This document shows, piece by piece, positions 12,025 through 30,331 of a stretch of DNA of 64,000 nt. A program made the translations under genes and the position numbers. Source of the stretch: Spinactinospora alkalitolerans (GTDB lineage: Bacteria > Actinomycetota > Actinomycetes > Streptosporangiales > Streptosporangiaceae); NCBI RefSeq assembly GCF_013408795.1, contig NZ_JACCCC010000001.1:5332001-5396000 (forward strand), read 5' to 3'. Each line of letters begins with the position of its first letter. Position 1 is the stretch's first letter. Under the pieces are notes generated by a model. That model saw only the letters and a list, made by a program, of their open reading frames with translations, ran no database searches and was not told the DNA's origin.

Positions 12025-12842
12025 TACAACTCCTTCAGAACAGCCGTCTCAAGACGCCGGAACACCCAGTATCCAATAACGAGCATGGCAGCGGACCACC
12101 CGAGGGTCGAGCACAGCATCACCGTGTCCGGCGCCTCACCGGGGAACCAGGCGGCGTGGTGCATCTGGAAGATGCCCACGAGCGGGTTGAGCTCGTAGAT
12201 CGTCATCGCCCAGGCCGGGAGTGCCTCCTGCACCCGGATGAGCGGGTAGATGATGGGCGTGGCGTAGAAGAGCACCCGGTTCAGGATACGGATCATGCGC
12301 TCGACGTCGCGCAGCAGCACGTTGACCGAGGCGAGCAGCATGGTGAGCCCGAGCAGGAAGGCGAACTGGCAGACCATCGCCAGCGGCGCCCAGAGCAGGT
12401 TCAGCCCGACCTTGCCCTGCAGCAGGACCACGAAGGCGATCAGCACCGGCCAGGTGAACAGGTAGTCCACGAACTTCCCGCTCACGACGGCGAAGGGGAA
12501 GATCTCCCTGGGCACCTTCATCGTGGTGATGAGCTTGGAGTGCGTGATCAGCGCGCGGCTGGCCTCGCTCATCGCCGTGCTGAACCACATCCACGGCAGC
12601 AGGCCGGAGATGAGGAACAGCGCGTACCCGCCGTACTGGTCGGCGTTCTCGGGCGCGGCCCGGCCCGAGAACAGCACGCCGAAGACGAAGTAGTAGATCC
12701 CGGCCATGGCCAGGGGCTCCAGCATCGACCAGGCGTAGCCCAGGACCGATTGCTGGTATTTGACCTTTAGGTCCCGCCGAACCAGGAGGTTCACTACCTG
12801 CCGGTTCTGCCAGACGGCCAGCGCCCTAGACGCCACCGCCAC
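12024..12842 (-). CDS. Polysaccharide/teichoic acid ABC exporter, permease
   Basis: A 272-residue ABC-2 type membrane subunit of the TagG/Wzm family. It has the family hallmark LVRRDLKVKYQQSVLGYAWSMLEPLA near residues 20-45 and six hydrophobic segments, among them GIYYFVFGVLFSG, FLLGLTMLLASVNVLLRD and a C-terminal SAAMLVIGYWVFRRLE. The conserved LNPLVGIFQMHH precedes the last span. It is coupled to the ATPase downstream. The 661-bp divergent region upstream separates it from the TarI-like gene. Confidence 0.93.
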   Translation of the reverse strand: MAVASRALAVWQNRQVVNLLVRRDLKVKYQQSVLGYAWSMLEPLAMAGIYYFVFGVLFSGRAAPENADQYGGYALFLISGLLPWMWFSTAMSEASRALITHSKLITTMKVPREIFPFAVVSGKFVDYLFTWPVLIAFVVLLQGKVGLNLLWAPLAMVCQFAFLLGLTMLLASVNVLLRDVERMIRILNRVLFYATPIIYPLIRVQEALPAWAMTIYELNPLVGIFQMHHAAWFPGEAPDTVMLCSTLGWSAAMLVIGYWVFRRLETAVLKEL

Positions 12843-15256: not shown

Positions 15257-16162
15257 GTGAACTCCCACGCCGATGTCGTACCGACCAAGCGCACCGAGAT
15301 CCCCGGATGGTTCTACTGGGAGGACCGGCTGCTGTTCGACTTCTTCCTGTCCCGGCAGAGCGGTCAGGAGCCGGGGACCCTCGTCGAGATGGGCGTCTAC
15401 CTCGGCAAGAGCGCCGTCGCCATCGGCGACCACATCCGCGAGGGCGAGGAGTTCGTCGCCTGCGACCTCTTCGGCGCCACGCCGGAGGAGGCCGACAACG
15501 CGCGCGAGAACACCAGGAGCTACAGCACGCTCACCCGCGACGCGTTCGAGCGGAATTACCTCACGTTCCACAAAGAGCTGCCGACCGTCGCGCACTGCGC
15601 CTCGGCGCGCATCACCGAATACGTCGCGGAGAAATCCGCGCGGTTCGTTCACGTCGACGCCTCGCATTTGTTCGAGCATGTTCACCTCGATCTGCGGAAC
15701 ACCCGGGCCCTGCTGCGCGACGGCGGCATAGCCGTGCTCGACGACTACCGCAGCGAGCACACGCCCGGCGTGGCCGCGGCCGTGTGGCAGGCCGTCGCCG
15801 TCGACGGGCTGGTGCCGATCTGCGTCACCCCGACCAAGTTCTACGGCTGCTTCGAGGACGCCGGACCGCACCTCGACGCGCTGCGCACGTGGCTGCCCGA
15901 TGCCGAGGGGCTGTGGTGGGAGGAGCAGCGGATCCACGACCGGCCGGTGCTGAGGGTCACCAAGGCGAAGAAGAAGCCGGCCGCGCCCAAGCCGGCGGAG
16001 CCGGAGGCCGCGCTCGGCGACATCCGGGCCTCGCTGTCGGAGCTGTCGGCGCGGGTGCAGCGGATCGACGCGCGGCTGGCCGGAAAGGGCTCCCGACCCC
16101 TGGCGTCGCGCGCGCTGAACAAGGTCCGCCGCACGCTGGCCGGGCGGCGCCCCGGGCGGTGA
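15257..16162 (+). CDS. Class I SAM-dependent methyltransferase (Methyltransf_24-like)
   Basis: A 301-residue protein. The SAM-binding motif I region is TLVEMGVYLGKSAVAIG, an acidic residue follows in FVACDLFGA, and VHVDASHLFEHVHLDL and GIAVLDDYRS match the TylF/Methyltransf_24 type used on sugars. After residue 235 there is a Lys/Pro-rich linker and a coiled-coil tail (ALGDIRASLSELSARVQRID). The GTG start has only a weak GAGGCGG site. It probably methylates a sugar of the surface polymer; this is inference from family and cluster. Confidence 0.72.
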   Translation: MNSHADVVPTKRTEIPGWFYWEDRLLFDFFLSRQSGQEPGTLVEMGVYLGKSAVAIGDHIREGEEFVACDLFGATPEEADNARENTRSYSTLTRDAFERNYLTFHKELPTVAHCASARITEYVAEKSARFVHVDASHLFEHVHLDLRNTRALLRDGGIAVLDDYRSEHTPGVAAAVWQAVAVDGLVPICVTPTKFYGCFEDAGPHLDALRTWLPDAEGLWWEEQRIHDRPVLRVTKAKKKPAAPKPAEPEAALGDIRASLSELSARVQRIDARLAGKGSRPLASRALNKVRRTLAGRRPGR

Positions 16163-16323
16163 TCCGGCGAAGGCCGGGTGAAGTCTTCGTGTCGCGATCG
16201 CGAAAGCCCTGTGTCGACCCCTCCTTCACACCTCTGTCCGCGGGTGGCCGGGGCTAGCGTTTCGATCGGACCGGGCTCGCGACCGAGCCCGGCGGTTCCC
16301 CGCTCCCTCGTCGAAAAGACCGG

Positions 16324-17520
16324 ATGATGTGGCGCTTGGCCAACCAGATACGCCCGTACGCCTGGGGCTCGACGACCTCGATCCCGGACCGGCTCGGCGT
16401 CGCCCCGGACGGGCGGCCCCAGGCCGAGCTGTGGATGGGCGCGCACCCGGGCGCGCCCAGCCGGATCGAGGCCGAGGCCGGCCCGGTCGCCCTGGACGCC
16501 GCCATCGCCGGCGATCCCAAGGAGATGCTCGGCGAGGACGTCGTGCTGCACTTCGGGGAGCGGCTGCCCTTCCTGCTCAAGCTGCTCGCCGCTGAACAGC
16601 CGCTGTCGCTGCAGGTGCACCCGAGTGCGGCGCGGGCCCGCGCCGGGTACGCCGCGGAGAACGCCGCGGGGGTGCCCCTCGACGCCCCGCACCGCAACTA
16701 CAAGGACCCGTTCCACAAGCCCGAGCTGGTCCTGGCGCTCGACGCGTTCGAGGCGCTGTGCGGTTTCCGCGACCCGGCCCTGGCCCGCGCCGAGCTGGAC
16801 GGGCTGGCCTCACCGCTCGCCGTCGCCCTGCGCACCGACCTCGCCGCGCCCGAGCCGCACTCGGCCCTGCGCGCGGCGATGACCCGGCTGCTCACCCTCC
16901 CGCCGGAGCGGCGCACCGCCGAGGTGGACGGGTTCGTGGGCGAACTCGCCGAGCTCCCCGTGGACGCCGTCCCGGACGGCGGCGGCGCGGCCGTCGTCCT
17001 CGAACTCGCCGAGCGCTACCCCGGCGACCCCGGCGCCGTCGCCGCCCTGCTGCTCAACCACGTCACGCTGGCCCCCGGCGAGGCGCTGTTCCTGCCGGCC
17101 GGCAACGTGCACGCCTACCTGCGCGGCACCGCCGTGGAGATCATGGCCGGCTCCGACAACGTGCTGCGCGCCGGACTGACCCCCAAGCACGTGGACGCCG
17201 ACGAGCTGCTCGACGTCGTGGAGTTCGCGGTGCTGCCCGTCCCCTACGCGGTGCCCGACCTCTGCGACGGCCGGATCGAGCACCGCCCGGACGTCGCCGA
17301 CTTCGCGCTCTCGATCATCACGCCCGATGCCGCCGAGGGCCCCGGACCGCGCGGACCGGCGATCGTGTTCGTCCTGGAGGGCGAGGCCGGGCTCCGCTCG
17401 GAGTCGGGCCGCGGGCTGGTGCTGGGTCGGGGCGAGTCCGCCTTCGTGCCCGCCTCCTGCGGCGAGGTGACGCTCACGGGCCCGGCGCGGGTCGTCGCGG
17501 CGACCACCGGGCGGATCTGA
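16324..17520 (+). CDS. manA: Mannose-6-phosphate isomerase, class I
   Basis: A 398-residue cupin enzyme interconverting fructose-6-phosphate and mannose-6-phosphate. Zinc and substrate motifs are present: LSLQVHPS, NYKDPFHKPELVLAL, LFLPAGNVHAYL and the family-wide LRAGLTPKHVD. Length and motif order fit ManA. ATG 16324 (MMWRLANQ) has no strong ribosome site. In this locus the product may feed GDP-mannose and, given the neighbouring NeuB/NeuA-HAD genes and no UDP-GlcNAc epimerase, may also be the substrate of a Kdn-9-phosphate synthase. Confidence 0.94.
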   Translation: MMWRLANQIRPYAWGSTTSIPDRLGVAPDGRPQAELWMGAHPGAPSRIEAEAGPVALDAAIAGDPKEMLGEDVVLHFGERLPFLLKLLAAEQPLSLQVHPSAARARAGYAAENAAGVPLDAPHRNYKDPFHKPELVLALDAFEALCGFRDPALARAELDGLASPLAVALRTDLAAPEPHSALRAAMTRLLTLPPERRTAEVDGFVGELAELPVDAVPDGGGAAVVLELAERYPGDPGAVAALLLNHVTLAPGEALFLPAGNVHAYLRGTAVEIMAGSDNVLRAGLTPKHVDADELLDVVEFAVLPVPYAVPDLCDGRIEHRPDVADFALSIITPDAAEGPGPRGPAIVFVLEGEAGLRSESGRGLVLGRGESAFVPASCGEVTLTGPARVVAATTGRI

Positions 17521-17864
17521 CCTCCTCCGTCACCGAAAAACGGACACAAGTGCGCCCGCCCGGACCCGCTCCCGCCCTTGCTGCCGCCTTCTCCTCCAGG
17601 GCACCCGCCACCCGGCATCGCCACAAGGCCGCACAGCGGGTCCACGCCTCGGAAGCCCGCCTCGCCCCGCCGTCCGATTCGGCCGCGGAGTTCGACGGAA
17701 GTTCACGTGCGGGTCCCGCGCGCGCCCACCGCACTCACTAAGGTGAAAGCGAAGGTGTCCATATCCGGGCATTCTTCGCCCGCCCCTTCACCGCTGTCCC
17801 CCCGTCGCCGGTCCGCCACCCCGCCGTGGCGGCGGCGGCCGCACAGGAGCGACGAGGCATTCCC
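17521..17864. other. 344-bp intergenic region
   Basis: Between manA and the next plus-strand glycosyltransferase. No gene-like frame with a ribosome site is present. The half nearest the downstream gene (about 17735-17790) is less GC-rich and may hold its promoter, but I cannot mark boxes. Confidence 0.4.
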
Positions 17865-18899
17865 GTGAACAACAAGCTAGTCGCGGCACCGGCCGGTCTC
17901 CTCGGCACCGACGACCTCACCGCGGCCACGGCCTGGGTGGAGACCCCCCTCCAGCTTCTCTCTGTGCTGGAGGCCCACTCCACCGGCCGGTTCGCCAAGC
18001 GGTGCCACGCCATCCCCCGGTCGGGATCGGCCGCGCTGGAGGCCACGGTGGCCGAGATCAAGCGCCTGGGCCTGCCGGCCGACCTGACGGTGCTGCCGGC
18101 CAGGGACGAGCCGCGCGACGCCCGCACCGACGCCGGCCTGTGGTTCATCGGCGACGCCTTCTCCGGGAAGGTGCAGAGAGCCCTGCTGCGCGACCGCCGC
18201 CGGCGCTACGTCGTCGTCGACGACGGTCTGGCGACCCTGCACCTGCTGCGGCTGCTGGTCAAGCCGGTCGCCGCCCCGCTGGTGCGGGCGCGGGTGCGGG
18301 CCGGCGTCTCGCGCAAGACCCTGGGACTGGCCACGGCGCTGCGGCTGCGCGCGGCCGCGCGCGCGGGCCGCCTGGCGGTCTTCACCGTCATCCCGCTGCC
18401 CGACGACCTCGCCGAGCAGGCGCGGCGCGCCGGGATCAGCATCGTCAACCACGACTTCACCTGGCTGCGCGCCCAGCCGGACTCCTCGGCCCCCGAGGAG
18501 AGGCGCGTGGTGCTCGGCGCCGCGATGGTCAACGACGGGCTCATCAGGGCCGACCGCTATCTGGAGTGGGTCGGCGCACACGCGGCCAAGGAGCCGGTGC
18601 TCTACTACCCGCACCGGCGCGAGGACGCCTCGACCCTGGAGCCGCTGAGCCGGGTGCCGGGCGTGCGCATCGCCGGCCACGGCCTGCCCGCCGAGGTCGG
18701 ACTGCGCGGGCTGACGGCCGGGCACCGCGTCGTGAGCCTGCCCTCGACCGCCGTAACATCGTTGCGTGTGCTGCTCGGCACCCGCGGTGTGCGGATCGAC
18801 GCGGCCGGGGTCCCCGAGGACTGGTGGACCGCCGAGGCCGCCCCGTCGCTGCGCGCGCACCTGAGCACGTTCGTCCACAGCCCGGAGGAAACTCGTTGA
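17865..18899 (+). CDS. Capsular/sialyl-type glycosyltransferase, GT-B like
   Basis: A 344-residue protein. The N-terminal WVETPLQLLSVLEA resembles the start of GT52 and polysialyltransferase-type enzymes, whose first strand reads xxTPLQL. RYVVVDDGLATLHLL is the acidic loop of that group, and EPVLYYPHRRED with VVSLPSTAVTSL is the likely CMP/phosphate-binding C-terminal half. GTG 17865 follows GAGG at seven bases. It overlaps the next gene (TTGA). With DUF6716, NeuB and NeuA genes nearby it is probably a nonulosonic acid transferase. Family level is uncertain. Confidence 0.6.
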   Translation: MNNKLVAAPAGLLGTDDLTAATAWVETPLQLLSVLEAHSTGRFAKRCHAIPRSGSAALEATVAEIKRLGLPADLTVLPARDEPRDARTDAGLWFIGDAFSGKVQRALLRDRRRRYVVVDDGLATLHLLRLLVKPVAAPLVRARVRAGVSRKTLGLATALRLRAAARAGRLAVFTVIPLPDDLAEQARRAGISIVNHDFTWLRAQPDSSAPEERRVVLGAAMVNDGLIRADRYLEWVGAHAAKEPVLYYPHRREDASTLEPLSRVPGVRIAGHGLPAEVGLRGLTAGHRVVSLPSTAVTSLRVLLGTRGVRIDAAGVPEDWWTAEAAPSLRAHLSTFVHSPEETR

Positions 18900-20173
18900 C
18901 CGAACGTGGAGACGTCCACGTCCTGGCGATCGCCGACTCCGACTCCTACCTGAAGTGGGCCGCGGGACTCCTCGACGGCCTGCCGCAGGGGTGGAGCGGT
19001 GAGCTCGCGGTCGTGCGCACGCCCATCGCGCCGTCCGCCGCGCAGATGGAGGGGGCCGTACACGGGACCCGGGTGCAGGACGCGCCGCCGCCGGTGCTCA
19101 CGGCCCAGGCCCTGCGGCGGTCGGTGCGGCGCAGCCGGCCCGACGTCATCGTGGTGGCGTGCACGGGGCCGGTGGTCGACGTGCTCGCCAGCACCGTGCT
19201 GAACGGGCTGGAGCCGCGGCCGGTGCTCGTCTCCGGCCTGCCGGGCATCTCGGTCCCGGCCTCCGACAAGGCGTGGCTGTTCCGCGGGCCGGTGGACCTG
19301 TTCGTACTGCACAGCCGACGCGAGGTCGAGGAGTTCCGCGAGGTCGGCGCGCGCCTGGGCGCCACAGGCTCGGTCGCGCTGGCCACCCTGCCGTTCCTGG
19401 CCGGCGGGCCCGCCCCCGGTCCGGCCGGACCGGCCGGTCCCGGTGCCCCCGAGGGGACCGAGAGGACCGAGAGGACCGAGAGGACCGAACGCGACCGCGT
19501 CGTGTTCGCCACCCAGGCCAAGGTGCCCGTGGAGCGGGAGGAGCGCGAGCGCGTCCTGCACGCGCTGGCCGGGCTCGCCGCGAACCGGCCCGACCTCGAC
19601 GTCGTCGTGAAACTGCGGGCCCGCGCGCACGAGCAGCAGACGCACCGCGAGCACCACCACTACGAGACGCTGTGGAACGGCCTGGTGGCGGCCGGCGCGG
19701 TGCCCGAGGGGGCCGTGACCTTCGTCGGCGGCGCGATGCGCGACCAGTTGGAGCGCGCGAGCGGGTTCGTGACGGTGAGCTCCACCGCGGCCCTCGAGGC
19801 GACCGCCCAGGACGTGCCGCTGCTGGTGCTGTCGGACTTCGGGGTCAGCGCCGAGATGATCAACCTGGTGTTCGAGGACAGCGGCGTCCTCGGCACGCTG
19901 GAGGATTTGAGCGCCGGCCGGTTCCGGCGGCCGAGCTCCCGGTGGTGCGCCGCCAACTACTTCCACGCCGCCGCCGACAACGACTGGGTCGAGCACCTGC
20001 ACAAGCTCGTCGACCAGCGCCGCGCGGGGACCCTGCCGGACCGGCCCGCGCTGCTCGACGGCCCCGAGCACGCCGCGGCGCGGCGCCGTGCGCGGCTGCG
20101 CCTGGAGGTCCCCCCGGCCACGCTGCGCACCATCGGCCGGGTCCGCAAGAAGATGCGCAGGCTGCTGACCTGA
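18896..20173 (+). CDS. DUF6716-type putative glycosyltransferase
   Basis: A 425-residue protein starting with TTG at 18896, seven bases after GGAGGAA and overlapping the previous stop. The N-terminal fold has VHVLAIADSDSYLKW, PDVIVVACTGP and SGLPGISVP. A linker has four TER tripeptides encoded by a 9-bp repeat (about 19456-19490). The second domain has VVFATQAKVP, VVKLRARAHEQQTH and VTVSSTAALEATAQDVP, the last like the donor-binding SSTALEA motif of CDP-glycerol and sialic-type transferases. In actinobacteria such proteins occur beside NeuB-type genes. A GT-B transferase adding a nonulosonic acid or phosphopolyol is inferred. Confidence 0.65.
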   Translation: MTERGDVHVLAIADSDSYLKWAAGLLDGLPQGWSGELAVVRTPIAPSAAQMEGAVHGTRVQDAPPPVLTAQALRRSVRRSRPDVIVVACTGPVVDVLASTVLNGLEPRPVLVSGLPGISVPASDKAWLFRGPVDLFVLHSRREVEEFREVGARLGATGSVALATLPFLAGGPAPGPAGPAGPGAPEGTERTERTERTERDRVVFATQAKVPVEREERERVLHALAGLAANRPDLDVVVKLRARAHEQQTHREHHHYETLWNGLVAAGAVPEGAVTFVGGAMRDQLERASGFVTVSSTAALEATAQDVPLLVLSDFGVSAEMINLVFEDSGVLGTLEDLSAGRFRRPSSRWCAANYFHAAADNDWVEHLHKLVDQRRAGTLPDRPALLDGPEHAAARRRARLRLEVPPATLRTIGRVRKKMRRLLT

Positions 20174-20196
20174 GAGGACGGGGGACGAGTGCATCC

Positions 20197-20486
20197 CCGA
20201 CCCCAGGGGGTCGGTAGGGCCCGCCCCAGGAGGGAGGGCGCGCGCCGACACCATGGGCACAGACCGACACCGCGGTTTCGGCCCGGCGCCCACGCAGGCG
20301 GCGTGGGCGGCGCGGCGCCGGTGCGATCCCTGTCAAGGGCCTTCGGCCACACGAGAGGATCGCCCGGTCACCGCGAGTCCCTCCTTGGGCTGGTGTCAAA
20401 GACCCCCTGAGGCCGGGGACGGCGCGCACCATCGCCCAACCACCGCGGATCCCACCTTGGGCTGAGCTTCACGCCCCCCAGTGGCC
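20197..20486 (+). repeat. Intergenic repeat, copy B
   Basis: The 44-bp core is at 20201-20244. Its start is palindromic, with CCGACCCC (20197-20204) pairing with GGGGTCGG (20207-20214), and might end transcription of the preceding gene. Two degenerate copies of the second unit follow at about 20338-20414 and 20427-20486. Together they fill the 336-bp gap between convergent genes. Confidence 0.75.
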
Positions 20487-20509
20487 AAGAACGGCGAACA
20501 TGCGCCTCC

Positions 20510-22585
20510 TCACCACCCCAGGGCCGCCTTCAGCTCGGTCTCCAGCGCGGGGGCGAGGGTGCGCGAGAAGGTTCCGGTCATGTGCGACTCGTCGTAGTAC
20601 ACCAGCACGTTGCCGATCACCGAACGGCACCGCCCATCGGGGCACACGTAGTCGTCGAGGTCGATGAAGGTCGCCTCGGAGGCCGCCGAGAGCCGCTCGT
20701 AGGGCGGCTCCTGCGCGAGGGAGAGGGTGAACTCCGTCTCGCACTCCGGGGAGTCGGCGCCGTTGCGCGCCACGCACTCCGGGGCGTCGAAGCCCATGCG
20801 GGGCGTGTCGCGCAGCGCCACGACGCGGCTGCCCAGCGCCGCCAGTTCCGCCCAGCGCTCCTCGTAGCCCTCCAGGACCTGCTCCCCGTTGCCGATGCTG
20901 GACCGGGTGGCGTGCGTGACCACCACGTCGGGCGGGTCCTCGGCGAGCCCGGCCATCACATCGGCGTTCCACGCCTCGCACTCGGGGTAGTCGTCCCTGC
21001 CCCGGTGCCAGGGGCCGGTGGTGAAGTGGCAGGCGTCCTTGGTCATGGTGATCAGCCGCCAGCCGTTGCGCTCCGCGGCCTCGCGCATGGCCGGGTACCA
21101 GTGCGCGATGTGGGAGTGGCCGATCAGCGCGACGGTGCGCTCGGCGTCGGCCGGCCCGTCGACGCACGGGTCGGCCGTCGTCGCCTCGAACATGTCGTGG
21201 CAGCCGCCGGGCTCCTTGTTCTCCCCCTGGTCGCCGTCGGCGTCGGCCGGGGCCGGCAGCACCGGGACGTCGGGGACGGGACCGGCGAAGTCCGCCGCGA
21301 GGACGGCGGCCCCGGGGTAGTTGCCCGGATCGGAGGCGAGTTCCCTGCGGTGGAGCTCCTGCCGGTCCAGGTGGACCGACCAGCCGCCGGCCGCGGTGAA
21401 CACGGGCAGCAGGCAGACCACCGCGACGGCGACCGACCACAGCGGCGCCGAGCGGGTTCGGACGAACCGCTGCACGCCGCCTTCGACCAGCCATTTCGTG
21501 GCGGCGGCCAGGGCGAGCGACACCGCCAGCACGCAGCAGCCGCCCAGCGGGGAGGCCACCTGGCGGTCGGCGACGCCGAGGTAGACCACCAGCACCGGCC
21601 AGTGCCACAGGTACAGGGCGTAGGAGATGTCGCCGATGTAGTGCAGCGGCCGCCAGGTCAGCAGCCGGTCGGCCCCGAAGCGGCTGCCGGTCGTGCCCGC
21701 GACGACGACCAGCACCGCGGCTCCGGTGGGCCACAGGGCGATCCAGCCGGGGAACATGGTCGAGACCTGGAGCAGGATCCCGCAGGAGACCAGCGCGGCC
21801 AGTCCCAGCCAGCCCATGGCGACGCGCGGGGCGCGCGGCAGGCGCAGGTGCGGCAGGACGATGGCGAGGGCGCCGCCGAGGGCCGGCTCCCACAGGCGCG
21901 CCCCGGTGTCGAAGTAGGCCCAGGCCTGGTCCGTCCCGGTGATCCGGACCGAGTAGGCGAACGAGACGCCGGCCACGGCCCCGAGCGCGGCCAGGACGAC
22001 CGGACGCAGGCCCCAGCCACGCCGGCGGGCGACCAGCGCCGCCAGCGCGATCAGGACCGGCCACAGCAGGTAGAACTGCCACTGGATGGACAGGGACCAG
22101 AAGTGCTGGAGCGGGCTGAGGTCGCTGTCGCGTGCCAGGTAGTCGACGGCGTTCGCGGCCAGGTACCAGTTCTCGTGGTAGAGCGCGGTGGCGACCGTCT
22201 CGGCGATGACGTCGCGCCATCGCGACTGCGGCAGCCACAGGGCCGTCGCGACCAGCGTCCCCAGCAGGACCAGGGCGGCCGGGGGCGTGAGACGGCCCAG
22301 CAGCCTGGCCCAGAACGCCGTGAAGCCGACCCTGCCGCGCCGCTCCACGGCGCGCACCAGGGACCCCGTGATGAGGAAGCCGGTGAGCAGCAGGAACACG
22401 TCGACGCCGCCGGAGACACGGCCGAGCCAGATGTGGTAGGCGGCGACCAGCAGGACCGCGACGGCGCGCAGCCCCTGGATCTCGGGCCGGTAGCCGCTCC
22501 CTCCGCCGGCCCTGGAACCGGCTCCCGGAGCGGCGTCGGCGCGCTCCGGGGCTGGAGCGGCGCCGGTGGGAACGGAAACGTGCAC
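20510..22585 (-). CDS. Membrane O-acyltransferase with C-terminal SGNH domain (OafA/YrhL type)
   Basis: A 691-residue protein. Residues about 30-400 are an acyltransferase-3 domain with about ten membrane helices. Its N-terminal hallmark is PEIQGLRAVAVLLVAAYH, followed by GGVDVFLLLTGFLITG and FWSLSIQWQFYLLWP. Residues about 500-690 form an extracytoplasmic SGNH-like hydrolase/transferase domain: block I is VALIGHSHIAHWYP and the C-terminal Ser-His pair region is DESHMTGTF. It transfers acetyl or a similar group to an exported glycan. Within the nonulosonic acid block it likely O-acetylates the polymer. The GTG start has no strong ribosome site. Confidence 0.87.
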   Translation of the reverse strand: MHVSVPTGAAPAPERADAAPGAGSRAGGGSGYRPEIQGLRAVAVLLVAAYHIWLGRVSGGVDVFLLLTGFLITGSLVRAVERRGRVGFTAFWARLLGRLTPPAALVLLGTLVATALWLPQSRWRDVIAETVATALYHENWYLAANAVDYLARDSDLSPLQHFWSLSIQWQFYLLWPVLIALAALVARRRGWGLRPVVLAALGAVAGVSFAYSVRITGTDQAWAYFDTGARLWEPALGGALAIVLPHLRLPRAPRVAMGWLGLAALVSCGILLQVSTMFPGWIALWPTGAAVLVVVAGTTGSRFGADRLLTWRPLHYIGDISYALYLWHWPVLVVYLGVADRQVASPLGGCCVLAVSLALAAATKWLVEGGVQRFVRTRSAPLWSVAVAVVCLLPVFTAAGGWSVHLDRQELHRRELASDPGNYPGAAVLAADFAGPVPDVPVLPAPADADGDQGENKEPGGCHDMFEATTADPCVDGPADAERTVALIGHSHIAHWYPAMREAAERNGWRLITMTKDACHFTTGPWHRGRDDYPECEAWNADVMAGLAEDPPDVVVTHATRSSIGNGEQVLEGYEERWAELAALGSRVVALRDTPRMGFDAPECVARNGADSPECETEFTLSLAQEPPYERLSAASEATFIDLDDYVCPDGRCRSVIGNVLVYYDESHMTGTFSRTLAPALETELKAALGW

Positions 22586-22661
22586 GACTCGGTTACCGCC
22601 TCACGACGCGGGGTGATCGGGAAAGAGGAGGGTCGAGGACGAAGACGGCGCTGTCCCGGCG

Positions 22662-24017
22662 CTAGTCCTTGCGGTCGAACACGGTCTGCTGCACGCTGCG
22701 GACCTTGCGCGCGCCGGAGACCAGCCAGTTCGTCGAGGAGCGCTGGGGCAGTGCCCCCGGCAGGTGCAGCGCCGTGAGGCGGCGCCGCTTGAAGTAGCGG
22801 CGGGTCGTGGCGTCGTAATGGGCGCCGAGGTAGTCGACCGCCGCTTCGCGCAGGTGCGGGTAGGCCGCCCCCTGCATGCAGTAGCTCACGGTGCGCAGCA
22901 GCGGCGCGAGCTCCCGGTGCAGCCGCTCCTCGGAGAACCGCGGCGGCCGGAGCCCGCCCTCCGCGTCGATCCGGGGCATCGATGCGTCGACGATCGTCAC
23001 GGGGATGCGGTTGCTGTTCTGGTACGGGGTGACGGCCTCCAGCAGCATCTCGGTGCCGACGCAGGCCACCGGGATGCCGTAGAGGTGCGCCGCGGTGCTC
23101 AGCCCCGTCGAGAAGCAGCTCACCACCGTCGACGGCCGCAGGACCGTGAACCACACCTCCGCGGGGATCGGCTCCTCCAGCAGGACCAGCCGCACGTCCA
23201 GCTCCTGTGCGGTCCGGCTCATGCGCAGATGGGTCCGGCGCGTGTTGGACGGGTGCGGTTTGAACAGCACCGTCCTGTGCCCCCGGGCCGCCATCGCCCG
23301 CACCATCGAGGCGTGCAGCTCGTCCTCCTGCTGCGGGGAGATGAGGTCGAGGGCCGACAGGTACTGCCCGAGCAGCAGCGGCGCCTCCTCGATCCCCTCG
23401 TCCAGCCGGGGTTTGAGCAGCCGGTCGAGGCTGTCGGCGACCTCCGACACCACCGCGCGGAACGCCTCCAGCGGCAGCGGGGAGCGTGCGACGTCGTACT
23501 CGTCGAGCAGCAGCGGTTCGACGCCGGGGACGAGGTCGAGGTAGACCAGTCGGTCGATCCTGGTGGCGACCTCGCGCGGCTGGCTGTTGCGCGTGGGGCC
23601 GTAGCTCATCAGGCCGTCAGAGTAGACCGTGATCGACGCGTCCTCGAAGATGGCCGCCAGGGACTTCGCCGGCGGCACCTGGACCGACTCCACCACGATC
23701 TGAAGAGGCGAGTCGTCCAACGACCAGTACGAGGCCAGCAGCCGCCGCAGCAGCAGCACGTCCTGCGGCCGGGGCTGCCAGGTCGAGGGGTGGAAGGGCC
23801 ACAGCAGCTCGTTCCACGAGACGACCTCGTCGAATCGGGAGCGGACGGCCTCGAACCCCGGCGCCTCCATCAGCGGGTCGGTGATCTCCAGCAGGGCGGC
23901 GTTGTCGCTGACCAGGAGGATCCTGCGGTCACCGGCCGGGCCGAACTCCCCGGAGTCGACCGCGGCGGCGAGCGACATCGCCCCGAAGAACGTGGAGGCG
24001 ACGAACATCTGGGTCAT
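22662..24017 (-). CDS. Polysialyltransferase-family glycosyltransferase (PF07388 type)
   Basis: A 451-residue protein starting MTQMFVASTFFGAMSLA, a form typical of alpha-2,8-polysialyltransferase family N-termini. VLFKPHPSNTRRTH is the conserved HP-type CMP-binding motif, and VVSCFSTGLSTAAHLYGIP the conserved S-TGL motif. ILLVSDNA and YSDGLMSYGP are in the first half. ATG 24017 overlaps the stop of the upstream GT2 by four bases. It would polymerise or add a CMP-activated nonulosonic acid made by the NeuB and NeuA genes a few hundred bases upstream. Linkage type cannot be read from sequence. Confidence 0.8.
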   Translation of the reverse strand: MTQMFVASTFFGAMSLAAAVDSGEFGPAGDRRILLVSDNAALLEITDPLMEAPGFEAVRSRFDEVVSWNELLWPFHPSTWQPRPQDVLLLRRLLASYWSLDDSPLQIVVESVQVPPAKSLAAIFEDASITVYSDGLMSYGPTRNSQPREVATRIDRLVYLDLVPGVEPLLLDEYDVARSPLPLEAFRAVVSEVADSLDRLLKPRLDEGIEEAPLLLGQYLSALDLISPQQEDELHASMVRAMAARGHRTVLFKPHPSNTRRTHLRMSRTAQELDVRLVLLEEPIPAEVWFTVLRPSTVVSCFSTGLSTAAHLYGIPVACVGTEMLLEAVTPYQNSNRIPVTIVDASMPRIDAEGGLRPPRFSEERLHRELAPLLRTVSYCMQGAAYPHLREAAVDYLGAHYDATTRRYFKRRRLTALHLPGALPQRSSTNWLVSGARKVRSVQQTVFDRKD

Positions 24018-24988
24018 CGGGCCAGCGCCTTTCCCGGGTCGACGACGGCCCGGAGTTGTTCCTCGCGCTCGTTGTCGATCGAGCCGAGGATGCGGTCGAG
24101 GACGTCGGGCGGCATCCGGCGCAGGGTCTCGGCCGCCCGCTGCCGCTGCCGCCTGCGCAGCGGCGGAGTGAGCCGCTCCTCCTCCTGGAGGTGGAAGGCG
24201 ATCATGGCGCAGTAGCTGCGCAGCGCCTTCGGCAGGAACCGGTCCCCCTCGGGGTCGCGTTCCAGTTCGGCGAGCACCCCGTCGAAGGAGTCGAAGAAGT
24301 GCAGCTGGCGCTCGTCCCCGATCCGGGTGAGCGAGCCCGCGACGCTGCGGCGGTAGCAGACGCCGATGAGCGAGACCACGGCGAAGGACTCGGCGTGCAG
24401 GTGCAGCCGCCACGTCCACTCGCGGTCCTCGGCGGTGAGCAGCTTCTCGTTGAACGTCAGCAGGCCCCGGTCCTGCAGCTTCTCGCGGTCGGCGATGCCG
24501 GACCAGGCGTTGGGGTAGTCCACCATCGTCGCGACGTTCTCGGGCAGGATCGCCGACCTGGGGGCGAGCGGGACGTTCCTGCGCCCCTCCGGGGCCCGGA
24601 CCAGCACGCGGTTCTTGCCGGTCACGCGCACGTGGTCGGTCTTGACGAAGCCGACGTCCAGCCGCCGGATCGCCTCCAGCGCCTCGGCCAGGTAGCCGGA
24701 CGGCAGCCAGTCGTCACCGTCGAGGTAGACGATGTAGCGGCCGCTCGCGGCCGCCAGGCCCTGGTTGCGCGCCGCGGACAACCCGACGGCGGCGTCGTTG
24801 CGGATCATCGACAGCCCGCCGAGGCGCTCGGCGAAATCGGTCACGATCTCCGGGGTCGCATCCGTCGATCCGTCGTCGACGACGATGAACTCGAAATCCT
24901 TGCGCGCGTTGCGGCCCAGGCTCGCCAGTGTGTCGGCGATGTAGGGCTCCACATCGCGGGCCGGAACGATGACCGACAGCGTGGTCAC
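24014..24988 (-). CDS. GT2 family glycosyltransferase
   Basis: A 324-residue GT-A transferase. The N-terminus LSVIVPARDVEPYIADTL, then FIVVDDGSTD, GLSAARNQGLAAASG and the DxD motif YLDGDDWLP are canonical. The C-terminal half (AEDREWTWRLHLHAESFAV and a helical tail) resembles transferases acting before polysialyl-type enzymes. GTG 24988 is preferred; a GGAG site lies nine bases upstream, and the open frame to 25138 lacks one. It is coupled to the polysialyltransferase-like gene downstream and about 80 bp from neuB. Confidence 0.85.
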   Translation of the reverse strand: MTTLSVIVPARDVEPYIADTLASLGRNARKDFEFIVVDDGSTDATPEIVTDFAERLGGLSMIRNDAAVGLSAARNQGLAAASGRYIVYLDGDDWLPSGYLAEALEAIRRLDVGFVKTDHVRVTGKNRVLVRAPEGRRNVPLAPRSAILPENVATMVDYPNAWSGIADREKLQDRGLLTFNEKLLTAEDREWTWRLHLHAESFAVVSLIGVCYRRSVAGSLTRIGDERQLHFFDSFDGVLAELERDPEGDRFLPKALRSYCAMIAFHLQEEERLTPPLRRRQRQRAAETLRRMPPDVLDRILGSIDNEREEQLRAVVDPGKALAR

Positions 24989-25067
24989 TCGAACTACTCC
25001 AGGTCTTCCTCGGGGGAGTGGGAGGGGCCGGGCGGCCCCTCCCACCGTGCCCACTGCGTCGTTCGGA

Positions 25068-25973
25068 TCAGGCGGTGGCGCGGCGGAGCCGCTTGCGGGG
25101 CTCCTCCTCGCCGGGGAAGACCCGCTTGACGCCGTCACCGAGGGCCCTCTCGATGACCCGGATGTCGCGGACGAGGTGCTCCAGGCCGGTCGGCTCCAGG
25201 GACGCGGCGTGGTCCGAGCCCCACATGGCGCGGTCCAGCGTGATGTGCCGCTCCACCGCGACGGCGCCCAGCGTCACCGCGGCGAGCGAGATCTGCAGGC
25301 CGCGCTCGTGGCCGGAGTAGCCGACCGGAACGCCGTAGCGCTCCCGCAGGGTTCCGATGGTGAGCAGGTTGGCCTCGTCCTCCGGCATCGGGTAGGTGGA
25401 GGTGGAGTGCAGGATGACCAGCTTGTCGCGGTCGAAGATCTCGACGGCCGCGTCGATCTCGTCGATGGTGGACATGCCGGTCGACAGGATGATCGGCCTG
25501 CCGGTCGCGGCCAGCGCCCGCAGCAGCTCGTGGTCGGTGATGGAGGCCGAGGCCACCTTGTGCGTGACGACGTCGAAGGACTCCAGGAACTCCACCGACG
25601 GAACGTCCCACGGGGAGGCGAACCACTGCAGCCCGCACTCCTCGGCGTACTTGGCGATCTCGCGGTACTCGTCCTGGCCGAACTCCACCCGGTGCTTGTA
25701 CTCCAGGTAGGTCATCTCGCCCCACGGCGTCTGCCGCATCTTGCCCTGCTGCTCCTTGGGCACGCAGATCTCGGGCGTGCGCTTCTGGAACTTGACCGCC
25801 TGGCAGCCGGACTCGGCGGCGACGTCGATCAGCTTGCGCGCGATCTCGACGTCACCGTTGTGGTTGATGCCGATCTCGCCAATGACGTACGTGGGCTGAC
25901 CAGGACCGACCAGCAGGTCACCGATGGTGACGGGGGCGGCCGCACTGGTGTGCACCGTTGCGCTCTGGGTCAT
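25068..25973 (-). CDS. neuB: NeuB-family nonulosonic acid synthase, short form
   Basis: A 301-residue PEP-condensing synthase (N-acetylneuraminate synthase family). Motifs are YVIGEIGINHNGD, VKFQKRTPE, ASPWDVPSVEFL, ILSTGMSTIDE, LHSTSTYPMPED, VGYSGHERG and VERHITLDRAMWGSDHAASL. The usual C-terminal SAF (antifreeze-like) domain is missing: the protein ends about 30 residues after the barrel motif HAASLEP. AAGGATAGGT precedes ATG 25973. It is six bases from the NeuA-HAD gene. Because that partner carries a phosphatase and no UDP-GlcNAc epimerase is in the window, the substrate may be a 6-phospho sugar, such as mannose-6-phosphate giving Kdn-9-phosphate. Confidence 0.9.
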   Translation of the reverse strand: MTQSATVHTSAAAPVTIGDLLVGPGQPTYVIGEIGINHNGDVEIARKLIDVAAESGCQAVKFQKRTPEICVPKEQQGKMRQTPWGEMTYLEYKHRVEFGQDEYREIAKYAEECGLQWFASPWDVPSVEFLESFDVVTHKVASASITDHELLRALAATGRPIILSTGMSTIDEIDAAVEIFDRDKLVILHSTSTYPMPEDEANLLTIGTLRERYGVPVGYSGHERGLQISLAAVTLGAVAVERHITLDRAMWGSDHAASLEPTGLEHLVRDIRVIERALGDGVKRVFPGEEEPRKRLRRATA

Positions 25974-25979
25974 GGATAC

Positions 25980-27131
25980 CTATCCTTTTCGTGCCGCGAG
26001 GACGCGTTCACACACTTCGCGGACGGCCCCGGAACCTCCGGGGCGCGACAGAACAAGCCGGGCCGCGGCCAGGACCTCCGGATGGGAGTCCGGGACCGCG
26101 ATCGGCCATCCGACCTCGGCCAGGCAACCGAGGTCATTGACGTCGTTTCCGACGTAGGCGACGCGGGCCGGGTCAAGGCCCTCGTCGCTGATCCACTTGC
26201 GCAGGGCTGAGCGCTTGTCGCTCAGCCCGTGCGTCACGGGAACCCTGAGTTTCTCCGCCCGGGCCCGGACGACCGGGTTGACCTCGGTGGAGAGGATGCA
26301 GAACGGCACCCCGGCCTCGCGCAGCAGCCGCACGCCCATGCCGTCGGAGCGGCTGACCGAGACGGCCTCGCGGCCGTCCTGGTCCACGTGCGCCAGGTCG
26401 TCGGTGTGCACGCCGTCGAAGTCGGTGACGACGGCGTCGACGTCCAGCGGCGCGGGCGCGTCGACGACCGGCGCGAGCGCGCGGACCAGGTCGAGGTCGG
26501 CCGGGGTGTCCACCTCCACGGCGCGCGCCTCGGGGACCTCCTGGACCTCGACGCGGCCGAAGAAGCGGTGCCGGTGCGCGCGGAAGCCGTCGGTGCGGAA
26601 GACGTAGAACGCGCCGGTCTCGCGGTAGTGCGGCTCGCGGTCCTGCCGGCGCGGGCGGTGGTGGTGGTCGTGGTTGATTCCGCGGGCGCCCTCGCCGGTG
26701 CGCCGCCACAGGAACTCGTAGGTCTCGACGGCGGAGAAGACCGCGTCGGCCTCGTCCGCCAGCACCCGGCGCACCGCGGCGTCGAGGTCGCCGGGGGCGA
26801 TGAACGGGCTCGTGCACTGGACGAACACCGTCACATCGGGGTCGCCGCCCCGACCGCGCAGCTCGTCCAGCGCGTGCAGCAGCGCCGACTCCGAGGAGGC
26901 GGTGTCGCCGCCGAGGCCGGCCGGGCGGTCCACCACCAGCGCCCCGGCGGCGCGCGCGGCGTGGGCGATCTCCTCGTGGTCGGTGGAGACCGCCACGGCG
27001 TCGATCGTCTCCGCGAGCCGGCAGGCCTCCACCGCGCGGGTCACCAGGGCGCGTCCGCCGACGGAGGCGACGTTCTTCATCGGAACGCCTTTGGAACCGC
27101 CGCGGGCGGGGATGACTGCGATGACACTCAA
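25980..27131 (-). CDS. neuA: Fused CMP-nonulosonate cytidylyltransferase and HAD phosphatase
   Basis: A 383-residue two-domain enzyme. Residues 1-225 are an acylneuraminate cytidylyltransferase: AVIPARGGSKGVPMKNV, VFVQCTSPFIAP, and ETGAFYVFRTDGF. Residues about 230-383 are a KdsC-like HAD phosphatase: VVTDFDGVHTDD (DxD nucleophile), FCILSTEVNP, a conserved Lys in SDKRSALRKW, and YVGNDVNDLGCL. The domains would remove the 9-phosphate and then charge the free acid with CMP. The TTG start at 27131 follows AGGAGC. It heads the neuA-neuB transcription unit, whose promoter must lie in 27132-27346. Confidence 0.92.
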   Translation of the reverse strand: MSVIAVIPARGGSKGVPMKNVASVGGRALVTRAVEACRLAETIDAVAVSTDHEEIAHAARAAGALVVDRPAGLGGDTASSESALLHALDELRGRGGDPDVTVFVQCTSPFIAPGDLDAAVRRVLADEADAVFSAVETYEFLWRRTGEGARGINHDHHHRPRRQDREPHYRETGAFYVFRTDGFRAHRHRFFGRVEVQEVPEARAVEVDTPADLDLVRALAPVVDAPAPLDVDAVVTDFDGVHTDDLAHVDQDGREAVSVSRSDGMGVRLLREAGVPFCILSTEVNPVVRARAEKLRVPVTHGLSDKRSALRKWISDEGLDPARVAYVGNDVNDLGCLAEVGWPIAVPDSHPEVLAAARLVLSRPGGSGAVREVCERVLAARKG

Positions 27132-27382: not shown

Positions 27383-27457
27383 GTGCTGGTCCGGTGAACG
27401 CCACGGCTCGGGGGCGGGCGTCCGGACCGCCGTCCGCCCCGGTCGCCGCGGCGCCGG

Positions 27458-28468: not shown

Positions 28469-28789
28469 AGGGTCAGGGAACCGGAGAGGGCGGGAGGGCC
28501 CGCAAAGAGCAACGCTACTGCAATCCGGGGTCGTGTCCGGCCTGCTCGGTCTGTGCGGCCTGTCCGGTCTGTGCGGCCCGCCCGGCCGGCGGCCCGCGCA
28601 CCGGGCCCGCACCGGTTTTTCGCATCGGGTCGCGCGCCGGGCGGCGGCCGGGATCGCGGAGCGCGCCTCCCGCGTCGAAAGCGGTGACCAACACGCCGAT
28701 ATCCGGCCTCCTGCCGCCAGGGGGCGGATTCCTGACACTCTGGGGTGTCAACCCGTAGGGAGATGGTTGATGGTGCGGGAGGTCACCCG
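28469..28789. other. 321-bp divergent intergenic region with short tandem repeat
   Basis: This should hold promoters for the GT2 and LCP genes. A direct repeat of CGGTCTGTGCGGCC occurs at 28547-28560 and 28565-28578 (18-bp period). No coding frame with a ribosome site was found. Confidence 0.5.
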
Positions 28790-30331
28790 ATGAGCGACGA
28801 CGCCGGGGGCGGCGGTCGGCACGAGACGCCGGAGTTCCGCCGGGTGCGTTCGGGGCCGCTGCCTCCCGGGGACGCGCGGGGCGCGCGGCCCCGCGCGCGC
28901 TCCCGCACGCCCTTCGCCCTCCCCAGCGCGCAGGCGCGCCGCAAGCGGGTGGCGCTGCTGCTGGCCGGGACGATGTCGGTCATCGTGCTGCTGGCGTCGG
29001 GGTCGGCGTGGGCGCTGACGGGCTGGGTGTCCGGGCAGCTCAACCGGGACAACGTCTTCGCGGGGCTGTTCGACGGCGACCGGCCGGCCGCCGGGCCCGA
29101 GGGTGCGCTCAACTTCCTGGTGATCGGCTCCGACAGCCGCGGCGGCATGGAGGGCGCCGAGCAGGAGGAGCTGAGCGTCGGCGACGTCGAAGGGGAGCGT
29201 TCCGACACCATGATGCTCGTGCACCTCAACAGCGACCGCGACCGGATCACGGTGGTCGGCATCCCCAGGGACTCCTGGGTGGACGTCCCCGGCCACGGCA
29301 GGAACAAGATCAACGCGGCCTACGCCTACGGCGGGCCGGTGCTGGCCATCCGGACGGTGGAGTCGGCCACGGGCGTGCGCGTCGACCACTACGTGGAGGT
29401 CGACTTCACCGGTTTCGTCGACGTGGTCGAAGCGCTCGACGGCATCGAGGTCTGCCTGCCCGAGCCGATCCGCGACGAGAAGGCGAACCTGGACATGGCC
29501 GCGGGGACGCACCAGGTGGACGGCGTCGAGGCGCTGGCCTTCGCCCGGACCCGCAAGTCCGCCGGCGGGGACCTGGACCGCATCGACCGCCAGCAGCAGG
29601 TGATGTCGGCGCTGCTGGACAAGGCGCTGGCCTCCGAGACCCTGAGCGATCCGGGCAGGTTCGCGAACTTCCTGGACAGCGCGCTCGGCTCCATCACCGT
29701 GGACGACGGCCTGGACACCGCCGCCATCAACCGGCTCGGCGGCCAGCTCCGCTCGTTCTCCCTGCAGGACGTGTCGTTCACCCAGGTGCCGATCGCCGAC
29801 ATGGACTTCCGGACGCCGAGCGGCGAGCTGGCGGTCGCCTGGAACGAGGAGCAGGCCGGCGAGCTCTTCGGCGACATCGCCGCCGACCGGCCGCTGGACG
29901 GCCCGGCCGGCGCGGGCGGGGAGTCCGGCGAGGCCGAGGACGAGCCGGTCGCGCCCGGCGACGTCACCTTGGAGGTGTTCAACGGGGTGGGCACGCCCGG
30001 CCTCGGCGCATCGGTCCGCGGCGACCTGGTCGGCGCCGGTTTCCAGGTCCCGTCCCAGGCGCAGAACTGGCCCACCCGCGACGTCGCGGAGACCGTGGTC
30101 CGCCACGCGCCGTCGCAGGCCGGGGCCGCGCAGGCGGTCGTCGACGCCATCCCCGGCGCGAGGGCGGAGCAGGACGACGCGCTGGGCGAGCGGGTCCAGG
30201 TCGTCATCGGGTTCAACTACGTCAGCGTGGAGGCGCCGCAGTCCACCTCTCCCGAGCCGAGCCCCGCGGGTACGGCGAACGGCCGCGGCGGCGTGCAGAC
30301 CGACACCGCGGCGGACAACGTGTGCGACTGA
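28790..30331 (+). CDS. LCP family glycopolymer transferase with LytR_C domain
   Basis: A 513-residue membrane-anchored enzyme. A disordered Arg/Pro-rich N-terminus is followed by one membrane helix (VALLLAGTMSVIVLLASGSAWAL, about residues 60-82). The LCP domain has LNFLVIGSDSRGG, RSDTMMLVHLN, VGIPRDSWVDVPGHGRNKINAAYAYGG and the Arg motif ALAFARTRKSAGGDLDRIDRQQ. A C-terminal LytR_C domain follows (VTLEVFNGVGTPGLG). It transfers lipid-linked glycopolymers to peptidoglycan outside the cell. GGGAGGT six bases before ATG 28790 sets the start. It is the likely attachment step for the polymer made by this locus. Confidence 0.93.
   Translation: MSDDAGGGGRHETPEFRRVRSGPLPPGDARGARPRARSRTPFALPSAQARRKRVALLLAGTMSVIVLLASGSAWALTGWVSGQLNRDNVFAGLFDGDRPAAGPEGALNFLVIGSDSRGGMEGAEQEELSVGDVEGERSDTMMLVHLNSDRDRITVVGIPRDSWVDVPGHGRNKINAAYAYGGPVLAIRTVESATGVRVDHYVEVDFTGFVDVVEALDGIEVCLPEPIRDEKANLDMAAGTHQVDGVEALAFARTRKSAGGDLDRIDRQQQVMSALLDKALASETLSDPGRFANFLDSALGSITVDDGLDTAAINRLGGQLRSFSLQDVSFTQVPIADMDFRTPSGELAVAWNEEQAGELFGDIAADRPLDGPAGAGGESGEAEDEPVAPGDVTLEVFNGVGTPGLGASVRGDLVGAGFQVPSQAQNWPTRDVAETVVRHAPSQAGAAQAVVDAIPGARAEQDDALGERVQVVIGFNYVSVEAPQSTSPEPSPAGTANGRGGVQTDTAADNVCD

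What the first reader, a model, noticed from the sequence alone, without database searches (positions are those of the whole stretch)
16324..27131. Candidate Kdn/teichulosonic acid pathway: manA, NeuB without epimerase, NeuA fused to a phosphatase
Seen: a NeuB-family synthase, a CMP-transferase fused to a KdsC-like HAD phosphatase, a PF07388-type polysialyltransferase, two further sialyl-type glycosyltransferases and an O-acyltransferase. No NeuC (UDP-GlcNAc 2-epimerase) is in 64 kb, but ManA is linked. Known: Kdn is made from mannose-6-phosphate and PEP through a 9-phosphate that must be dephosphorylated, and Kdn-containing teichulosonic acids occur in actinobacterial walls. Inferred: the fused phosphatase plus ManA supply that route, and the polymer is exported by the TagGH-like transporter and attached by the LCP protein.
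Basis: partly seen in the sequence, partly recalled or inferred. Interest (0 to 1): 0.8.

Follow-up and report, generated by a model that had tools for sequence, protein, structure and literature searches.

The report
Actinobacterial Kdn cell-wall sugar gene cluster
This is a gene cluster that most likely builds the sialic-acid-like sugar Kdn from mannose-6-phosphate for a cell-wall polymer, using a shortened synthase that in some related bacteria is fused with the next two enzymes of the pathway into one protein.

Summary
In detail: window 16324-27131 encodes ManA, a GT-B protein, DUF6716, an O-acyltransferase, a PF07388 polysialyltransferase, a GT2, a NeuB-family synthase and a NeuA-HAD fusion. 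No NeuC/WecB-family epimerase was found in the 6.68 Mb genome, but NanE and two AGE-family genes were. The Kdn reading is supported, not proven. The NeuB lacks the SAF domain, whose arginine positions ManNAc's N-acetyl group in the meningococcal enzyme; 81 of 81 aligned actinobacterial copies share this loss and an invariant Lys-Arg after strand 2. The HAD has three residues of the Bacteroides Kdn-9-P phosphatase. Of 50 relatives' genomes, 17 lack NeuC/WecB and full-length NanE; all 17 have ManA. In 12 of 72 loci NeuA, HAD and NeuB form one frame. Streptomyces and Promicromonospora, genera with Kdn walls, carry these loci. A teichulosonic-acid cluster is already described in Streptomyces coelicolor, so the kind is known; the SAF-less, phosphatase-fused synthase is the variant. 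ManA linkage is a minority trait; export and attachment are inferred.

The parts
25980..27131 (-). NeuA-HAD fusion: CMP-nonulosonate transferase (residues 1-~220) plus KdsC/Kdn-9-P-phosphatase-type HAD (226-383)
   Evidence: DxD, S, K and GNDxxD positions kept in at least 72 of 75 aligned rows; E/R/K at the positions of Bt 56/64/67
25068..25973 (-). SAF-less NeuB-family synthase, proposed Kdn-9-phosphate synthase; starts 6 bp after the neuA-HAD stop
24014..24994 (-). GT2 glycosyltransferase (start uncertain; the ORF is open to 25138)
22662..24017 (-). PF07388 alpha-2,8-polysialyltransferase-family protein; its likely start overlaps the GT2 stop
20510..22585 (-). AT3-SGNH O-acyltransferase
   Evidence: (SucT model 439 bits, below its cut-off 1275)
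18902..20173 (+). DUF6716 putative glycosyltransferase (start uncertain)
   Evidence: 449 bits
17826..18899 (+). GT-B-fold protein without Pfam match; fold neighbours include bacterial sialyltransferases
16324..17520 (+). ManA, mannose-6-phosphate isomerase (the genome's other copy over the cut-off is at 1794181)
15257..16162 (+). Methyltransf_24 methyltransferase, possible decorator (inferred)
   Evidence: homologue in 2 of 80 loci, L079 and L080
27458..28468 (-). GT2 glycosyltransferase (start uncertain)
   Evidence: homologue in 9 of 80 loci
28745..30331 (+). LCP-LytR_C protein, candidate ligase (inferred)
11215..12024 (-). ABC transporter ATPase, TagH-like (inferred exporter)
12024..12842 (-). 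ABC-2 permease, TagG-like (inferred exporter)

Best explanation
The cluster makes CMP-Kdn from mannose-6-phosphate and polymerises Kdn into a wall glycopolymer (teichulosonic acid). Inferred steps: ManA supplies Man-6-P; the SAF-less NeuB condenses Man-6-P with PEP to Kdn-9-P, its invariant Lys64-Arg65 (and perhaps Arg80) holding the sugar phosphate, with no need for the SAF arginine that places an N-acetyl group in a ManNAc-using enzyme; the HAD domain of NeuA-HAD removes the 9-phosphate; the NeuA domain makes CMP-Kdn; the PF07388, DUF6716, GT-B and GT2 proteins build the chain and the AT3-SGNH enzyme acylates it. Shown: gene content, domain loss, conserved residues, fusions, epimerase absences. 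Not shown: any activity, the polymer, its export or attachment.
For: SAF absent in 81 of 81 aligned copies. K64-R65 invariant in 81/81 and present in 101 of 102 SAF-less copies of a second set that includes the window's own copy and may share species with the first. SAF loss matters because Nm Arg314 of that domain is said to place ManNAc's N-acetyl group, R314A is inactive, the Nm enzyme rejects mannose and the human one takes Man-6-P (passages of PMC6795526). Predicted R65 directly follows beta-2, the loop region of KDO8P synthase's Asn57-Arg58, which contact a phosphate of bisphosphate inhibitors (passages of PMC6650799; that it is the aldose phosphate is recalled). HAD: E, R and K at Bt positions 56/64/67 in 73, 74 and 73 of 75 aligned rows; the two chains named KdsC/KDO8P phosphatase that were printed have Arg and Thr at 56 and 67. 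NeuA and HAD lie in one open frame in 72 of 72 loci holding both (70 with a gap under 200 bp, 2 with longer gaps); NeuB joins that frame in 12 of 72 loci, in Nonomuraea and in 5 of 6 family relatives with the gene. Of 50 genomes with this NeuB, 20 lack PF02350, 17 of these also lack full-length NanE, 13 of the 17 have no PF07221 match, 17/17 have ManA; two of the 13 are records titled complete Streptomyces chromosomes (L082, L087). Streptomyces coelicolor and Promicromonospora citrea walls contain Kdn (passages of PMC7831098 and PMC6801904) and both genera carry these loci. SCO4873-4882 is called the teichulosonic-acid cluster (passages of PMC13011467), and a Planobispora 'sialic acid synthase' is matched to SCO4880 (passage of PMC8269224).
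Against: This genome has NanE and two AGE-family genes, so ManNAc-6-P is not excluded here. 30 of 50 relatives do have PF02350, not sorted into WecB or NeuC. Completeness of the 50 genomes was not told; L037 and L058 among the 17 are MAGs. ManA was near neuB in only 5 of 80 loci plus Actinorugispora. NCBIfam scores miss the curated cut-offs: NeuB_NnaB 268.8/399.65, KDN-9-PPhBT 90.8/180, KdsC 93.8/208, TIGR01670 81.2/106.95, and the HAD scores slightly higher on KdsC than on the Kdn model. Human NANS uses Man-6-P and has an antifreeze domain (passages), so SAF loss is not required for Kdn. Two of 8 SAF-bearing actinobacterial synthases also have KR. The KDO8P synthase paper is not consistent: its Table 1 labels the Asn57/Arg58 phosphate as PEP-derived, its text gives Lys133/Arg163 to the PEP moiety. 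In viral loci with the same NeuB type, 0 of 80 had a HAD match and 9 of 80 a NeuA match to the window within about 3 kb. Nocardiopsis walls in the passage read are teichoic acids with no Kdn named. I had neither the Bt Kdn-9-P synthase nor the S. coelicolor genes to align. The best PDB match of the NeuA domain, 9t4z 'PpNeuA', may be the Prymnesium parvum CMP-Kdn synthetase of PMC6200933, but its species was not verified.
Confidence: 0.7

Rival explanations
1. A mammalian-type Neu5Ac-9-phosphate route: NanE makes ManNAc-6-P, NeuB makes Neu5Ac-9-P, HAD dephosphorylates it and NeuA makes CMP-Neu5Ac for a polysialic acid.
For: NanE is in this genome (182 bits) after a frame with a ROK-type motif (by eye); the phosphatase fits a 9-phosphate; the polymerase family is PF07388.
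Against: NanE at E below 1e-30 in only 8 of 50 relatives' genomes (in one of them split in two pieces); 17 of 50 lack both that and PF02350; NanE lies about 2.1 Mb away; the SAF arginine that places the N-acetyl group is missing.
Confidence: 0.13
2. Another phosphorylated aldose is the substrate, giving a different ulosonate (for example a Kdo-like C8 acid from arabinose-5-P or a heptose-derived acid).
For: HAD scores 93.8 bits on KdsC and 90.8 on KDN-9-PPhBT; the synthase fold is shared with KDO8P and DAHP synthases.
Against: Family is PF03102 and the best folds are NeuB, PseI and SpsE (Z 31-38 against about 23-27 for listed DAHP/KDO8P synthases); HAD residues at 56/67 differ from the KdsC chains printed; Streptomyces and Promicromonospora polymers contain Kdn.
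Confidence: 0.1
3. Legionaminic or pseudaminic acid pathway with some genes elsewhere.
For: The best NCBIfam model of the NeuA part is PseF (119 bits, cut-off 205.7); an Azospirillum plasmid carries a SAF-less NeuB and a NeuA-HAD-like protein next to legB, legC and neuC.
Against: No PF02350 epimerase in the genome; no Leg/Pse genes among the window proteins scanned (not all were scanned); to my knowledge Leg/Pse routes pass through no 9-phosphate, leaving the phosphatase unexplained.
Confidence: 0.04

Closest known systems
Streptomyces coelicolor teichulosonic-acid cluster SCO4873-SCO4882
   Same: NeuB-family synthase plus glycosyltransferases. I did not retrieve the S. coelicolor genes; the 23 loci titled Streptomyces hold the NeuB (63-66%), a GT-B homologue in 23, NeuA-HAD in 22, and DUF6716, PF07388 and GT2 homologues in 21 each. 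Polymer of Gal and Kdn (passage of PMC7831098).
   Different: Gene order differs in those Streptomyces loci and ManA is not in them; PhoP control is reported there, no PHO box was found before neuA here. The 2014 cluster paper was not held; I saw it only cited.
Bacteroides thetaiotaomicron / Prymnesium parvum CMP-Kdn pathway (passages of PMC6200933)
   Same: Same proposed three steps from Man-6-P; the HAD has E/R/K at Bt 56/64/67.
   Different: There the three activities are described as separate proteins; here phosphatase and CMP-transferase are fused, and in some relatives all three.
Neisseria meningitidis NeuB (1xuu, 2wqp)
   Same: Same barrel fold (2wqp: Z 37.1, rmsd 3.0 A, 289 residues); Glu25, Gln55, Lys129, Tyr186, Ser213, His215 and Glu234 equivalents kept in 81 of 81.
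   Different: No SAF domain; Thr110, Phe112 and Asn184 replaced; Glu134 position is Ser or Cys in the 81 actinobacterial copies.
Vertebrate CMAS
   Same: CMP-sialate synthetase with a C-terminal KdsC-like HAD domain (3ewi is among the hits; the architecture is recalled).
   Different: Here the HAD catalytic positions are kept; whether they are in CMAS was not tested.

Membership tests
CMP-Kdn pathway (Bt / P. parvum type) | Synthase uses Man-6-P + PEP to give Kdn-9-P | not testable with these tools
   needs an assay; sequence features only suggestive
CMP-Kdn pathway (Bt / P. parvum type) | HAD phosphatase with catalytic positions kept and Bt E56/R64/K67 equivalents | tested here: met
   the meaning of E56/R64/K67 is recalled, not read in a paper (one search found none)
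CMP-Kdn pathway (Bt / P. parvum type) | Score above the curated NCBIfam cut-off for the Kdn-9-P phosphatase (NF058599) | tested here: not met
   90.8 bits against 180
CMP-Kdn pathway (Bt / P. parvum type) | CMP-nonulosonate transferase linked to the synthase | tested here: met
Teichulosonic-acid (Kdn polymer) cluster | Same gene set in genera with a known Kdn polymer | tested here: met
   NeuB with NeuA-HAD in 22 of 23 Streptomyces and 3 of 3 Promicromonospora loci; PF07388 homologue in 21 of 23 and 1 of 3, DUF6716 in 21 of 23 and 2 of 3; genus level only, not the analysed strains
Teichulosonic-acid (Kdn polymer) cluster | Kdn-containing polymer in the wall of this organism | not testable with these tools
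   needs NMR or GC-MS
Canonical N-acetylneuraminate synthase (TIGR03569) | Score above cut-off | tested here: not met
   268.8 against 399.65 bits
Canonical N-acetylneuraminate synthase (TIGR03569) | C-terminal SAF/antifreeze domain | tested here: not met
   no PF08666 match in the protein or at this place in the genome; 0 of 81 copies
Neu5Ac pathway via NeuC | UDP-GlcNAc 2-epimerase (PF02350) in the genome | tested here: not met
   0 matches
Neu5Ac-9-P pathway via ManNAc-6-P | NanE present and clustered | tested here: inconclusive
   present but about 2.1 Mb away
KDO8P synthase | Fold and family closest to KdsA | tested here: inconclusive
   PF03102 is the family; the fold is related but scores lower

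The most novel reading that the evidence does not exclude
SAF-less NeuB proteins with the FQKR loop form a separate branch of sialic-acid synthases specialised for a phosphorylated, non-N-acetylated sugar (Man-6-P), spread through actinobacteria and phage contigs; in actinobacteria the branch has become one metabolic unit with its phosphatase and CMP-transferase, ending in a trifunctional NeuA-HAD-NeuB protein that turns Man-6-P, PEP and CTP into CMP-Kdn on one polypeptide.
Probability: 0.45. Interest if true: 0.66.

Novelty: new variant of a known kind. Interest (0 to 1): 0.52.

Why it matters
[quoted passage not shown] The synthase signature (no SAF, FQKR, non-acidic at the Nm Glu134 position) gives a testable way to tell Kdn-type from Neu5Ac-type synthases from sequence, and the natural triple fusions are candidate one-pot CMP-Kdn enzymes.

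Tried and rejected
PHO-box search: 12 matches with 3 mismatches in 64 kb (shuffle mean 4.7; none of 100 shuffles reached 12); none lies upstream of neuA (27132-27457); two lie in the gaps before manA (16166-16183) and before the GT-B gene (17690-17707); too degenerate to use, not followed up. The promoter/terminator scan gave nothing useful. Idea that manA proximity is an ancestral LCP-purEK neighbourhood: in three Streptomyces genomes (four manA copies) no window gene tried other than manA matched at E 1e-15 within about 19-20 kb on either side; one of three other single regions (L115) had a UDP-glucose-dehydrogenase-like match; so not supported. PHROGs gave no family for the window NeuB. PDB profile search of the GT-B protein gave nothing credible. 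Literature searches for the KPRTS motif (no paper) and for Kdn-9-P phosphatase residues (nothing relevant) failed. I do not know the role of Glu134 in Nm NeuB, so no mechanism is hung on it. The SAF profile was built from the C-termini of the seven SAF-type comparators, so their seven positives are circular; independent positives are 8 of the 30 actinobacterial loci of that call. The tree (61 SAF-less against 15 SAF-bearing rows, no exception, FastTree support 0.996) used a sample: every 4th of 80 viral and every 5th of 80 actinobacterial relatives, plus 30 loci, 9 plasmid comparators and the window; chosen by similarity to the window, so supportive only.
Full report
Observation. The window is G000:C1:5332001-5396000 of a single-contig 6.68 Mb genome. 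Pfam and NCBIfam confirm ManA (16324-17520), DUF6716, an AT3-SGNH acyltransferase, a PF07388 polysialyltransferase, GT2 enzymes, NeuB (25068-25973) and a CMP-transferase/HAD fusion (25980-27131). NeuA-HAD, NeuB, GT2, PF07388 and acyltransferase run in one direction, with 6 bp between NeuA-HAD and NeuB and a PF07388 start that overlaps the GT2 stop. The relative with the closest NeuB, Actinorugispora (88%), has the same order, with DUF6716, the GT-B gene and ManA on the other strand.

The synthase is short relative to canonical NeuB, and this is not a frameshift of one genome. The 301-residue protein ends where the SAF domain would start; the genome's three PF08666 matches are elsewhere and I saw no SAF in the three downstream frames by eye. 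All 80 relatives run 290-329 residues from the position of the window's start to their stop, and 0 of 81 match a SAF profile. That profile was built from seven SAF-bearing comparators; its independent positives are 8 actinobacterial loci. In a second set of 110 loci (80 viral, 30 from unnamed actinobacterial genomes, one of them the window itself) 102 lack SAF; 101 of these 102 have Lys-Arg after the FQ of beta-2, and none of the 102 is acidic at the Nm Glu134 position. All 8 SAF-bearing ones are acidic there and 2 of the 8 have Lys-Arg. The seven named SAF-bearing NeuB/PseI comparators have Thr after that Gln and Glu at the 134 position. In a sample of 396 genomes of the phylum, 61 match the family profile, and 22 hold a SAF-less copy among the 30 best loci looked at.

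Why this points to a phosphorylated, non-acetylated sugar. [quoted passage not shown] R314A is inactive; the enzyme refuses mannose, whereas the human enzyme accepts Man-6-P (passages of PMC6795526). The SAF-less family keeps other contacts listed there (Glu25, Gln55, Lys129, Tyr186, Ser213, His215, Glu234 equivalents), but has Ser for Thr110, Trp for Phe112 and Ser for Asn184; Asn74 falls in a gapped stretch opposite the conserved TPWG. The AlphaFold model (pLDDT 91.5) places R65 just after beta-2 (model number = residue minus 1). In KDO8P synthase Asn57-Arg58 contact one of the two phosphates of bisphosphate inhibitors (passages of PMC6650799). That paper's table labels it the PEP-derived phosphate, while its text gives Lys133/Arg163 to the PEP moiety; that it is the aldose phosphate, and the like role of DAHP synthase's KPRTS, is recalled. 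This analogy is inference.

The phosphatase. The HAD domain's best PDB match is 3mmz (182 bits), then 3n1u (98) and 3e81 (82). PMC6200933 (passages) names the Bt Kdn-9-P phosphatase Q8A712; that 3e81 is this protein is recalled, and the PDB labels it a cytidylyltransferase. Residues at Bt 56/64/67 are E/R/K in the window; over 75 aligned HAD rows they are E in 73, R in 74 and K in 73. Against this, the KdsC model scores slightly higher than the Kdn model and both are below cut-off.

Fusions. Of 80 loci, 72 held both a NeuA and a HAD match (6 neither, 1 each only one); in all 72 the two lie in one open frame, in 70 with a gap under 200 bp between the matches. In 12 of the 72, NeuB is in the same open frame: Microbispora (3), Herbidospora (4), Isoptericola (4), Arthrobacter castelli (1). 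Nonomuraea gerenzanensis has a 742-residue frame with all three. In the window's family 7 of 19 genomes hold this NeuB, and 5 of the 6 other than the window are triple frames; these may overlap in species with the first set. In the 28 unnamed-genome loci (window included) the result was 18 NeuA-HAD with separate NeuB, 5 triple, 1 with a separate HAD, 4 without all three in reach. An upstream gene with no stop of its own must be read into NeuB, so these are true fusions unless sequence errors intervene.

Substrate supply. In this genome PF02350 gives no match, ManA two copies over the cut-off, NanE one, AGE family two. In 50 of the 80 relatives' genomes (50 is the cap) 30 have PF02350 and 20 do not; 18 have any NanE match, 12 over the cut-off, 8 at E below 1e-30 (one split in two). 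Of the 20, 3 have such a NanE, leaving 17; 4 of the 17 have an AGE-family match (3 full-length, 1 weak partial); 17 of 17 have ManA. Three of the 17 have weak partial NanE matches (24-26 bits, one counted as over the cut-off), which I took for other barrels; with these counted, 12 of 50 have no match to any of the three families. L082 and L087, titled complete genomes, are among the 12. An unknown epimerase is not excluded.

Known context. S. coelicolor's main wall glycopolymer is teichulosonic acid of Gal and Kdn (passages of PMC7831098 and PMC11481543); SCO4873-4882 are called its biosynthetic genes (passages of PMC13011467), citing a 2014 paper that I did not see. Promicromonospora citrea has a Kdn teichulosonic acid (passage of PMC6801904). 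Both genera have these loci. So the kind is known; new here are the synthase signature, the phosphatase reading and the triple fusion, none of which appeared in the listings or passages I saw.

Weak points. ManA is linked in 5 of 80 loci plus Actinorugispora, in two lineages and at different places (beside the GT-B gene, or beside NeuA-HAD in L023 and L024/L114). By simple arithmetic one of two manA genes would fall within 9.6 kb of neuB by chance about 0.6% of the time, so linkage here is probably meaningful, but it is not general. Export by the ABC pair and attachment by the LCP-LytR_C protein rest on proximity only. No polymer chemistry is known to me for this organism. Viral copies of the synthase were not seen with the phosphatase, so the unit is an actinobacterial one as far as seen, apart from an Azospirillum plasmid pair.

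Noticed in passing
L117-L196 (IMG/VR viral contigs): Viral contigs carry SAF-less NeuB genes with the same FQKR motif (80 of the 80 best of 521 hits, 51-60% identical to the window). Ten neighbours from four loci include CMP-transferase-family, PhyH and TylF proteins and a sub-cut-off CST-I match; 0 of 80 had a HAD match and 9 of 80 a NeuA match.
   Followed up: partly
L094:5998-8749 (Azospirillum thermophilum plasmid): A SAF-less NeuB (50%) and a NeuA-HAD-like protein (39%) sit with a TylF-type O-methyltransferase beside legB, legC and neuC.
   Followed up: partly
L100:2287-3831 (E. coli plasmid): A 514-residue protein with a SAF-less NeuB-like C-terminal half (KLQKR) next to an inositol-monophosphatase-family gene and IS26.
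   Followed up: no
window 3814-9127: A second possible wall-polymer region: UDP-sugar dehydrogenase, GT2, CDP-alcohol transferase, an iron-containing alcohol dehydrogenase family protein and a nucleotidyltransferase-like ORF.
   Followed up: no
window 13507-15023: IspD-family cytidylyltransferase followed by a glycerophosphodiester phosphodiesterase between the ABC pair and manA.
   Followed up: no
window 16166-16183 and 17690-17707: PHO-box-like matches (3 mismatches each) in the gaps before manA and the GT-B gene; such matches are more frequent in the window than in any of 100 shuffles.
   Followed up: no
L216: One distant actinobacterial locus has a separate HAD upstream of NeuB and NeuA downstream, possibly the unfused state.
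   Followed up: no
PDB 3e81, 4hgq, 4hgr: These chains align as HAD phosphatases but carry the molecule name 'Acylneuraminate cytidylyltransferase'.
   Followed up: no
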